Of a stretch of 64,000 nucleotides of DNA, positions 21,826 through 24,755 are shown piece after piece. Every line of letters begins with the position of its first letter. The first letter of the stretch is position 1. The stretch is from the NCBI GenBank assembly GCA_028877275.1, contig JAPPFP010000017.1, positions 1-64,000 on the forward strand, in the 5' to 3' direction. The notes beneath the pieces were generated by a model. That model made no database searches. It saw only the letters and a list, made by a program, of their open reading frames with translations, and was not told where the DNA came from. The translations under genes were made by a program, and so were the position numbers. This DNA is from Acidobacteriota bacterium. GTDB taxonomy: Bacteria > Acidobacteriota > Thermoanaerobaculia > Multivoradales > Multivoraceae.

Positions 21826-21917
21826 GATCGGATGCGTTGGAAGTCACGTCGTCGGAGGGCGCGAAAGGCGCCATAGCGTATACGCGAGCGGCAGTCGACG
21901 CCACGGCGGGGGAGGCA

Positions 21918-22101
21918 CCCGCCCGTTCTGGGGCCGGAGGGGGTCAGCTCCCAGGGTGACGCGGGCGCTTGAGAGGAGATGGTAGGGGCTGCGCCCGCTC
22001 CGCTTCACTCGCTCCGGTCTGGCGTCGGATCCTGTGCGGTCGGTGGCCGTCGCTCGTTCAGAGGCACCTGGGAGCTGACCCCCTCCGGACCCAGAACGGG
22101 C
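21918..22101. repeat. MITE-like element copy 1 with ~37-bp terminal inverted repeats
   Basis: Left gcccgttctggggccggagggggtcagctcccagggtg versus inverse of right gcccgttctgggtccggagggggtcagctcccaggtg: one substitution and one indel. Confidence 0.8.
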
Positions 22102-22154
22102 TGGACGTCTTTGCCGGGGGCCGCTGGCCTGTCGTTCGGACTGTGCCAGTAGGG

Positions 22155-22189: not shown

Positions 22190-23221
22190 CTAGAAGAGGG
22201 TGTTGTGGACGGGCAGGTCCAGGTGTTCGTATGCGCGTTTGGTGGCCACGCGGCCGCGGCGAGTGCGCTGTAGGAACCCCTTCTGGACGAGGTACGGCTC
22301 GTAAAAGTCCTCGATCGTGCCCTCGTCTTCGCCGACCGAGGCCGCTAGTGCCTTCAGGCCGGCCGGGCCGCCGCCGTACTGCTCGATCAGCAGTTTCATG
22401 ATCCTGCGGTCGATCTTGTCGAGGCCCTGCTCGTCGACTTCCTGCTGGAGGAGAGCCTGGTTTGCGGTGTCGCGGTCGATCCGCCCGTCCGCTTCTATCT
22501 GCGCGTAGTCGCGCACCCGGCGCAGCAGCCGGTTCGCGATCCTGGGCGTGCCGCGGCTGCGCCGGGCGATCTCGTCGGCGCCGCCCAGGTCGACGGGCAC
22601 CTCGAGCAGCTCGGCCGAGCGCTGGATGATGACGCTGAGAACGTCCGGACCGTAGAAGTCGAGCCGGTGGACGATGCCGAAGCGCCCCTGCAGCGGTGGC
22701 GTGATCAGGCCGGCGCGGGTGGTGGCGCCGACCAGTGTGAATCGGGGCAGATCGATGCGCACCGTCTTGGCCATCGGCCCGGCACCGATCACCAGATCGA
22801 GCTGGAAGTCCTCGAGCGCCGGGTAGAGGATCTCCTCCACCGTCGGACCGAGCCGGTGGATCTCGTCGATGAAGAGGACGTCCCCGGGTTCGAGGTTGGT
22901 CAGGATCGCCGCCAGGTCGCCCGCCCGCTCCAGGACCGGACCGGAGGTGGACCGCAAGGTGGAACCCATCTCCCTGGCGATGATGTGCGCCAGGGTCGTT
23001 TTGCCGAGCCCGGGCGGCCCGAACAGCAGCACGTGGTCCAGAGCCTCGCCCCGCCGGCGCGCCGCCTGCATGTAGATGTCGAGCAGCTCGACGATCTTCT
23101 CCTGGCCCAGATACTCGTTCAGCCGCTGCGGCCGCAGCGACGGTTCGAGGCGACGGTCCTCCGCGTCCCGGGCGGCTGAGAGAACGCTCTCTTCACCGTC
23201 GGTGCCAACCGTCCCGGCCAT
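22190..23221 (-). CDS. ruvB: Holliday junction branch migration helicase RuvB
   Basis: 343 aa; [62 protein letters not shown]. Confidence 0.97.
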
Positions 23222-23470
23222 GGGCGGATGCTATCGCGGTATCACTGGGGAGGAAGACTACTCGGCGGAGGAACGCGCTGACATCAGCTAAGGCGAGCCC
23301 GAGCGTGTGTTTGTCGTCAAGACTGCCTTGGTGCCTTCTCTCTATACAGGTGGTGGTTTGTTTCAAGAGTCAGCAAAGAGTAGATCTAAGTTGACTAAAG
23401 TGGTCTACGTGGGTACGCTGCGCCCACTGTGGGCGTTTTCAAGCCTGCGGAGGATCTTCGACAAGGAGTA

Positions 23471-23577
23471 TGGAGGGCCAGACGGGATTTGAACCCGTGA
23501 CCGAGGTGTGCGCTTCAACACATGACCTCGGTACGTCCCTTTGCAAGAGGGCTGCCTTACCACTCAGCCACTAGCCC
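23471..23577 (-). tRNA. Atypical tRNA, 107 nt with encoded CCA; cloverleaf anticodon UGC, but U73 and D-arm resemble tRNA-Cys; 37-nt variable region
   Basis: GGGCTAG/CTGGCCC acceptor (one U.G), GCTGAGTGGTAAGGC D-arm, GCCCT-CTTGCAA-AGGGA anticodon arm, ACGGG-TTCAAAT-CCCGT T-arm, discriminator T, CCA; variable arm ACCGAGG...CCTCGGT. Confidence 0.8.
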
Positions 23578-23828
23578 ATCTCCGTCGAAGGTCAAGGTCG
23601 TTGGCGGCGGTCCGAATTGGTACTCGGACCGCCGCCTCTTCGTGTTGGTCCCCGTCACGGATCACCGAGAGCGAAGCCTATCAGCAGTTGAGGGTAGTCG
23701 TCTACCTATACCTATGCGACAAATAGGTACTACCCCTAGTACCCGTTCGGGCCGGGTACCACTATCAGTAGGTTGAGAGAGAGGAAGCACGTTAGTTGTC
23801 AACAGAACATCCCCAACTGAGCTTGAGA

Positions 23829-24317
23829 TCATAACTCAGCCGCATCTCCTTGGTAGTGCACTGTGGGACGCGGTACCTCCCCTGAGGCTGGAGTGTTGTC
23901 CGGTGGCAGCTCCCACTCACCGGATCCGCGCTTCCGCAGTTCCCCTTTGTCGACAAACCGGTCAAGGGTCGCGCACACTGACGCGTACAGCCTCGACCTG
24001 CTCTTGGATGGATAGCCACCGTTCATGAGGGCGTCGCGGATCTTCGTCGTCTTGTAAGGGCCGGGCCTGGCCGAGATGTACCCGCGTATCGCCTCGGTCA
24101 AGCCCATGCGGCTGAACGGGAGAGGCTCTGCGGCACTTTGGGCAGTCGCCGGAGGCTCAGGGCCTTCCCCCAGTTGCTCCACGAATCGCTCCAAGCTCTG
24201 CAGAGCGTCCTCAGCTCGCTCGTACTTGCCTTTGGCCTCCGAGTACCTGCGCAGCCACTTATCTCGTTGGGAGCGCAGAAGCTCCAGCGTTATCGTGTAT
24301 GTGTCTGTCTCGCTCAT
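23829..24317 (-). CDS. Hypothetical protein: N-terminal charged/coiled-coil segment, C-terminal winged-helix-like segment
   Basis: 163 aa from an ATG preceded by AAGGAGG; LTEAIRGYISARPGPYKTTKIRDALMNGGYPSKSRSRLYASVCATLDRFVDKGELRKRGSGEWEL looks like a winged helix. Confidence 0.65.
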   Translation of the reverse strand: MSETDTYTITLELLRSQRDKWLRRYSEAKGKYERAEDALQSLERFVEQLGEGPEPPATAQSAAEPLPFSRMGLTEAIRGYISARPGPYKTTKIRDALMNGGYPSKSRSRLYASVCATLDRFVDKGELRKRGSGEWELPPDNTPASGEVPRPTVHYQGDAAEL

Positions 24318-24546
24318 CTCTGCCTCCTTCATCCGTGGTGACGAAGCTCGACATGGCCGCCCCGCTCAACCTTGTTGTTGGGACCGTTGGGATGTTATGG
24401 GGTCTGCGTTGATGCTGTCAAGCGCTGGCCGGAAGCTCCTCCATAGGTAGGAGGCGTCTAGCTCTATGCCGTCTTGGTGCCTAGGTGGCAATGGCGCGAC
24501 AGACCCGGTGGACCACCTGGGACAGTGGCGGCGGCGGCGACGTCCA

Positions 24547-24727
24547 GCCCGGTTTCGGGGCCAGAGGGGGTCAGCTCCCAGGTGCCTCTGAACGAGCGAC
24601 GCCCGGCGCCCTCCCATGAACCGATCACAAACCGGAGCGAGTGAAGCGGAGCGACCGCAACCCTCCCCATCTCCTCTCAAGCGGGAGCGTCAGCTGGGAG
24701 CAGACCCCCTCCGGCTCCGACCGGGCG
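24547..24727. repeat. MITE-like element copy 2, inverted relative to copy 1
   Basis: Termini gcccggtttcggggccagagggggtcagctcccaggtg and inverse of cagctgggagcagaccccctccggctccgaccgggcggg; the interior, reverse complemented, matches copy 1 (gcttgagaggagatgg...cgctccgcttcactcgctccgg...cgtcgctcgttcagagg). Confidence 0.78.
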
Positions 24728-24755
24728 GGTGCATGCGACGACGCCTTCCCGGTCG

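What the first reader, a model, noticed from the sequence alone, without database searches (positions are those of the whole stretch)
23471..23577. 107-nt tRNA gene with a 37-nt variable arm and conflicting identity elements
Seen: full cloverleaf with encoded CCA. The D-arm (GCTGAGTGGTAAGGC) and U73 look like bacterial tRNA-Cys. The only well-paired anticodon arm (GCCCT-CTTGCAA-AGGGA) puts UGC at 34-36, one base off GCA. The variable arm has a 7-bp stem (ACCGAGG/CCTCGGT) plus a second 4-bp stem (TGTG/CACA). Known: bacterial long variable arms (Leu/Ser/Tyr) are much shorter, Cys is normally type I, and AlaRS needs G3:U70, but here it is G3-C70. Inference: a divergent tRNA-Cys, a non-canonical isoacceptor, or a tRNA-like RNA.
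Basis: partly seen in the sequence, partly recalled or inferred. Interest (0 to 1): 0.78.

Follow-up and report, generated by a model that had tools for sequence, protein, structure and literature searches.

The report
Acquired tRNA with giant variable arm
A sponge-type Acidobacteriota genome carries, in a small DNA insertion that close relatives lack, an intact extra tRNA gene with an unusually long fifth arm and a mismatched set of identity signals; its nearest look-alikes are tRNAs carried by phages, so it is probably an acquired, dispensable tRNA rather than the cell's cysteine or alanine tRNA.

Summary
Window 23471-23577 (minus strand) encodes an intact 7/5 cloverleaf with CCA, U73, a 37-nt variable region (13 pairs) and UGC in register (Rfam tRNA, 49.9 bits; ARAGORN misses it). 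It is not the cell's tRNA-Cys: the genome has a normal tRNA-Cys(GCA). It lies in a ~1.3-kb, lower-GC insertion between ruvA and ruvB. Four close relatives lack the insertion, and no congener (20) or class genome (152) holds a homologous sequence. One congener (G007) has a different 107-nt long-arm tRNA with U73 and anticodon GAA. A distant Acidobacteriota genome (G213) has an 89-nt long-arm, U73, UGC tRNA 142 nt behind a homologue of the insertion's winged-helix protein, beside an IS1-type transposase. Long-arm tRNAs with encoded U73-CCA are rare in Acidobacteriota but common on viral contigs, with Ser, Thr, Cys and Lys anticodons and sometimes 28-55-nt variable arms. Best reading: a mobile, phage-type class II tRNA acquired with a small islet. 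Which amino acid it accepts (Ser most likely, then Cys), and whether it decodes at all, is unproven. It resembles allo-tRNAs and selC* tRNA-Cys but lacks their defining 12-bp acceptor branch.

The parts
23471..23577 (-). long-variable-arm tRNA gene (107 nt, encoded CCA, U73, UGC at 34-36)
   Evidence: Rfam RF00005 49.9 bits; fold z -2.48; compensatory changes against the G007 long-arm tRNA
23499..23535 (-). 37-nt variable region: 8-bp stem, internal loop, 5-bp stem, UGAA loop, ending in C48
   Evidence: sequence; RNA fold
23536..23552 (-). anticodon arm GCCCT-CTTGCAA-AGGGA, 4 bp plus G27.A43 mismatch
23578..23590 (-). 5' flank CTTCGACGGAGAT, able to pair with the 3' flank and lengthen the acceptor stem in the precursor
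   Evidence: RNA fold of 221 nt, z -4.10
23456..23470 (-). 3' flank TACTCCTTGTCGAAG, partner of the 5' flank
23603..23636 (.). 13-pair G+C-rich hairpin just upstream of the tRNA; terminator-like on the + strand; a similar hairpin precedes the G007 tRNA
23829..24332 (-). 167-aa ORF: coiled coil (8-54) plus winged helix (78-141); homologues in other Acidobacteriota
   Evidence: AlphaFold2, block pLDDT 82-91 in most of the winged helix; Foldseek to Z-alpha, Rok and MukE winged helices; homologues
23240..24535 (.). insertion between ruvA and ruvB (right edge 24532-24538), 58.7% G+C against 68% for the window
   Evidence: replaces 69-152 nt in L052, L054, L055; no other copy in own genome or genus
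22190..23221 (-). ruvB, flanking gene
   Evidence: same order without the insertion in L052, L054, L055
24756..25373 (-). ruvA, flanking gene
   Evidence: Pfam RuvA_N, HHH_5, RuvA_C

Best explanation
The gene is an intact, supernumerary class II (long-variable-arm) tRNA of the kind carried by phages and other mobile elements, brought into this genome on a ~1.3-kb islet that also encodes a winged-helix protein. Shown: the fold, the insertion, its absence from relatives, the presence of normal tRNAs, and the existence of many long-arm U73-CCA tRNAs on viral contigs. Inferred: it is transcribed as a precursor with a lengthened acceptor stem, matured at its encoded CCA, and charged by an enzyme that reads the long arm rather than the anticodon, most likely SerRS, so that it would put serine at alanine GCN codons. 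It would be kept as an accessory tRNA of a mobile element (extra or damage-resistant tRNA, or tolerated missense), not as part of the core decoding set. The confidence given is for the acquired phage-type class II tRNA; serine as its amino acid is only about 0.35.
For: Intact cloverleaf. Core tRNAs present, including tRNA-Cys(GCA) and tRNA-Sec. Islet missing from L052-L055 and from all 20 congeners, G+C 58.7% against 68%. A long-arm U73-CCA pattern gave real long-arm tRNAs in only 4 of 396 Acidobacteriota genomes including this one, with no hits listed for the reversed-pattern control; one of the four (G214) lies on a stretch that looks like phage by eye. Viral L309 and L350 have very long variable arms with U73. 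The D-arm stretch is identical to viral tRNA-Ser(GCU) L339. A G213 homologue of the winged-helix protein sits 142 nt upstream of a long-arm U73 UGC tRNA, beside an IS1-family transposase.
Against: No integrase, transposase or target-site duplication in the window's own islet. No virus or plasmid record matched the tRNA or the protein. The winged-helix protein is absent from the fetched viral tRNA loci. U73 is not the G73 expected by SerRS (PMC7609411). Charging, expression and decoding are untested.
Confidence: 0.55

Rival explanations
1. It is a cysteine-accepting class II tRNA, derived from phage-type class II tRNA-Cys(GCA), whose anticodon arm has slipped by one base; it is charged by CysRS through U73 and either still reads UGY through a shifted loop or inserts cysteine at GCN codons.
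For: At least 10 viral class II tRNA-Cys(GCA) genes with U73-CCA exist in the fetched loci, one of which (L232) has an 88% relative annotated as tRNA-Cys in Rhizobium phage B1VFA; two of those examined (L232, L294) have the loop TTGCAAA, which the window shows in the alternative register; U73 is the Cys discriminator.
Against: By register and energy the anticodon is UGC (-42.1 against -38.0 kcal/mol). CysRS normally needs GCA. U73 also occurs in viral class II tRNA-Ser and in host Gly and Thr tRNAs.
Confidence: 0.2
2. It is a structured RNA with a tRNA shape that is not used in translation: a decoy or regulatory RNA working with the winged-helix protein, or a part of a mobile element, as suggested in the literature for some Acidobacteria allo-tRNAs.
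For: Conflicting identity elements; a 4-bp anticodon stem (G27.A43); its counterpart in G213 has C33 instead of the near-universal U33; homologous winged-helix ORFs next to both; IS1-family transposase near the G213 pair; PMC7609411 reports untranslatable allo-tRNAs tied to a transposon-related gene in Acidobacteria.
Against: All tRNA-specific features, including encoded CCA and the bases for the T-loop/D-loop contacts, are intact. 13 other loci with homologues of the winged-helix protein have no tRNA within 1.5 kb.
Confidence: 0.2
3. It is a core tRNA of this genome: the only tRNA with UGC, serving GCA codons as tRNA-Ala.
For: No other Ala(UGC) gene was found in the assembly.
Against: No G3:U70 and no A73; both ordinary Ala tRNAs here have G3:U70. 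Ile(GAU) is missing too and no 16S was found, as expected if the rRNA operon is absent or withheld; the congeners have no such gene.
Confidence: 0.04

Closest known systems
Class II tRNAs (Ser, Thr, Cys, Lys anticodons) with U73-CCA on phage contigs, e.g. viral L309, L350, L232, L339; tRNA-Cys of Rhizobium phage B1VFA
   Same: 7/5-type cloverleaf, long variable arm, encoded U73-CCA, Ser-like D-arm; L309 and L350 share the very long variable arm
   Different: The window gene has UGC, a 27.43 mismatch, and lies on a bacterial chromosome with no recognisable phage gene beside it
allo-tRNA (Mukai et al. 2017, as reviewed in PMC7609411)
   Same: Long variable arm, non-Ser anticodon, extra to the normal set, reported in Acidobacteria, one overlapping a transposon-related gene
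   Different: Allo-tRNAs are defined by a 12-bp acceptor branch in 8/4 or 9/3 form; this one is 7/5 with U73
selC* tRNA-Cys (as reviewed in PMC7609411)
   Same: Long variable arm with U73
   Different: selC* is 8/4 with a bulged A in the T-stem, has GCA or UCA, and can lie next to selB*/cysS*; none is seen here
tRNAs with 4-bp anticodon stems (PMC13092985)
   Same: Broken 27-43 pair
   Different: That study centres on tRNA-Trp and superwobble; a term search of its text found no long-variable-arm or Cys case

Membership tests
allo-tRNA | 12-bp acceptor branch in 8/4 or 9/3 form | tested here: not met
   7 + 5 pairs; an eighth acceptor pair would be U-U
allo-tRNA | long variable arm with non-serine anticodon | tested here: met
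   37-nt variable region, UGC
allo-tRNA | SerRS identity including G73 | tested here: not met
   U73; charging itself not testable here
selC* tRNA-Cys | 8/4 form with bulged A in a 4-bp T-stem | tested here: not met
   5-bp T-stem without bulge
selC* tRNA-Cys | U73 | tested here: met
selC* tRNA-Cys | GCA or UCA anticodon | tested here: not met
   UGC by register and energy
canonical tRNA-Cys | GCA anticodon, type I variable loop | tested here: not met
   UGC, 37-nt variable region; the genome's own tRNA-Cys(GCA) is elsewhere
tRNA-Ala | G3:U70 pair | tested here: not met
   G3-C70
long-arm U73-CCA tRNA as found on phage contigs | class II scaffold with U73 and encoded CCA | tested here: met
   matches the pattern used
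long-arm U73-CCA tRNA as found on phage contigs | carried by a phage or mobile element | tested here: inconclusive
   lies in an acquired insertion but with no phage gene in it
any functional elongator tRNA | aminoacylated and used by the ribosome | not testable with these tools
   needs tRNA-seq and charging assays

The most novel reading that the evidence does not exclude
Acidobacteriota carry a mobile two-gene unit, a coiled-coil/winged-helix protein plus a long-variable-arm U73 tRNA with a non-matching anticodon, in which the tRNA is deliberately mischarged (for example serine or cysteine at alanine codons) or serves as a decoy under control of the protein.
Probability: 0.12. Interest if true: 0.8.

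Novelty: new variant of a known kind. Interest (0 to 1): 0.48.

Why it matters
If it is charged, the organism carries a tRNA whose amino acid and codon disagree, which is a natural missense or decoy system. The wider pattern seen on the way, that viral contigs hold many class II tRNAs with U73 and with Thr, Cys or Lys anticodons, some with variable arms of 28-55 nt, is testable at once and bears on how phage tRNAs obtain their amino acid and avoid host tRNA-cutting defences. Such genes can be missed or misnamed by a standard tRNA finder, as ARAGORN did here.

Tried and rejected
A DNA homologue search for the tRNA in 152 class genomes found only T-arm matches to ordinary tRNAs, mostly Gly. Plasmid and phage collections had no match to the tRNA or the protein. 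A first viral pattern requiring CTTGCAA gave 0, and a last one was over-specified by my own error in spacing and gave 0, so viral UGC counterparts were not properly sought. The idea of a conserved 'winged helix + long-arm tRNA' unit was only partly borne out: the G007 ORF is not detectably homologous, and of the 15 loci with winged-helix homologues other than the window's, one has a long-arm tRNA and one an ordinary tRNA-Asn nearby. Apart from the G007 gene, the long hits to model R1 that were examined were Ser tRNAs. Absence of tRNA-Ala(UGC) was set aside as an effect of the missing or withheld rRNA operon. Extended-acceptor pairing of the flanks is shared with G007 but was not seen in G213, so it was not used as a defining feature.

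Full report
Observation. The gene lies on the minus strand, 23577->23471. Rfam's tRNA model finds it at 49.9 bits, E 1e-7, in UGC register; ARAGORN does not. All arms are intact: acceptor 7 bp, D 3 bp plus G13.A22, anticodon stem 4 bp with a G27.A43 mismatch, variable region 37 nt with 8+5 bp, T-stem 5 bp, U73, encoded CCA. The fold is better than shuffles (z -2.48), and with its flanks, which can lengthen the acceptor stem, z is -4.10. The UGC structure is -42.1 kcal/mol against -38.0 for a GCA reading with a 7-nt loop; an unconstrained fold without tertiary contacts prefers yet another D/anticodon arrangement, so energy alone is not decisive.

Genome. The host is an Acidobacteriota of the Thermoanaerobaculia type: its closest RuvB matches are MAGs labelled Acidobacteria, Holophagales and Thermoanaerobaculia; the sponge origin is my inference from the isolate names. 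The 4.3-Mb assembly has 44 tRNA matches. A normal tRNA-Cys(GCA) and tRNA-Sec are present. Among the usual set, only Ala(UGC) and Ile(GAU) stand out as missing; these normally sit in the rRNA operon, and no 16S was found. A probe for a standard Ala(UGC) found nothing in 21 genomes of the genus, a single-contig one included, so this absence carries no weight. U73 is shared by this genome's Cys, Gly and Thr tRNAs.

Setting. Close relatives L052, L054 and L055 have ruvA and ruvB separated, beyond a shared ~200-nt repeat, by only 69-152 nt where the window has about 1,290 nt; L053 has the ruvB side inverted. None of the four has a tRNA there. The inserted stretch (23240 to 24532-24538) has 58.7% G+C against 68%, has no second copy in the genome and none in 20 congeners. 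It carries one convincing ORF of 167 aa (23829-24332), predicted as a coiled coil plus winged helix (Foldseek best matches are winged-helix domains, none below E 0.001). No target-site duplication or transposase gene was found in it.

Relatives of the tRNA. A covariance model of this tRNA, run on 152 class genomes, found one other 107-nt member, in congener G007: different acceptor and anticodon (GAA) but U73 and a nearly identical variable-arm base (GCCGAGG/CCTCGGC against ACCGAGG/CCTCGGT). Structure-aligned, 9 pairs change on both sides (shuffle mean 4.5; slid controls 0-1). A two-sequence model on 396 phylum genomes gave only these two above 100 nt among the listed matches; the search used strict filters, so shorter or weaker members could be lost.

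Relatives of the neighbour protein. Four phylum genomes, this one included, have homologues. In G213 the homologue is followed 142 nt downstream, on the same strand, by an 89-nt long-arm tRNA with U73-CCA, UGC in register, a 27.43 mismatch and C33, near an IS1-family transposase. In G092 an ordinary tRNA-Asn is adjacent. A profile search of 193 genomes in G213's class gave further homologues in 11 genomes, none with a tRNA within 1.5 kb, and G470's has none either. My rough estimate is that adjacencies within 150 nt among 15 loci would be expected about 0.1 times by chance against two seen, so linkage is suggestive, not established. The G007 tRNA also has a small ORF beside it, but that protein shows no homology.

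Phage connection. A pattern for long-arm tRNAs with U73-CCA matched 7 of 396 Acidobacteriota genomes; three matches are chance spacings before ordinary Gly or Thr tRNAs, leaving the window, G213, G214 (tRNA-Thr UGU on a stretch that looks like phage by eye) and G078 (a tRNA-Ser); no reversed-pattern control hit was listed. Most viral examples have Ser anticodons, but Thr, Cys and Lys occur repeatedly. Because loci were chosen by U73, these counts say nothing about how common U73 is among viral class II tRNAs. Two viral members have giant variable arms: L309, inside an array of 30 tRNAs, and L350, with about 55 nt and an 8-nt anticodon loop. A relative of the viral class II tRNA-Cys L232 is annotated in Rhizobium phage B1VFA. 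The window's D-arm stretch TGGCTGAGTGGTAAGGCA is identical to that of viral tRNA-Ser(GCU) L339.

Interpretation. The evidence supports an acquired, intact, supernumerary class II tRNA of phage or mobile-element type. The amino acid is not settled: SerRS recognises the long arm and not the anticodon, which makes serine the first guess, but U73 is unusual for it; CysRS would favour U73 but wants GCA; AlaRS is unlikely without G3:U70. By comparison with the literature it resembles allo-tRNAs and selC* tRNA-Cys (PMC7609411), but the 12-bp acceptor branch that both share was tested and is absent. That review also reports Acidobacteria allo-tRNAs, one of them overlapping a transposon-related gene, that could not be used in translation in E. 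coli, which keeps the non-translational rival alive.

Limits. All genomes here are assemblies, many of them MAGs; expression and charging are unknown; the final viral scan for UGC or Cys counterparts was spoiled by a spacing error of mine; the original allo-tRNA paper was not available to read, so its content is taken from the review.

Noticed in passing
L350:12577-12700 (viral contig IMGVR_UViG_3300043174_000063): tRNA-like gene with a variable region of about 55 nt, an 8-nt anticodon loop (ATTTAGTC) and U73-CCA; Rfam tRNA 41.9 bits, missed by ARAGORN.
   Followed up: partly
viral loci L230-L352: Many class II tRNAs with U73-CCA on viral contigs, including Thr(UGU), Cys(GCA) and Lys(UUU) anticodons on a long-arm scaffold; I found no description of this in the papers searched.
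   Followed up: partly
window 21911-22116 and 24532-24736: A dispersed, internally palindromic ~200-nt repeat (core GGGGGTCAGCTCCCAGG) lies inverted on both sides of ruvB; in relative L053 the ruvB side is inverted relative to ruvA, as if the repeats recombined.
   Followed up: partly
L178:4748-6612 (G213): IS1-family transposase, winged-helix ORF and long-arm UGC tRNA in a short stretch next to what look like purine-synthesis genes.
   Followed up: partly
L161:1501-1607 and 1741-2181 (G007): 107-nt long-arm tRNA with GAA anticodon and U73, without encoded CCA, beside an ORF of unknown family; seen in only one of 21 genomes of the genus.
   Followed up: partly
L228 (G078), near 1501-1590: tRNA-Ser(UGA) next to what looks like serS, with U73 instead of G73.
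   Followed up: no
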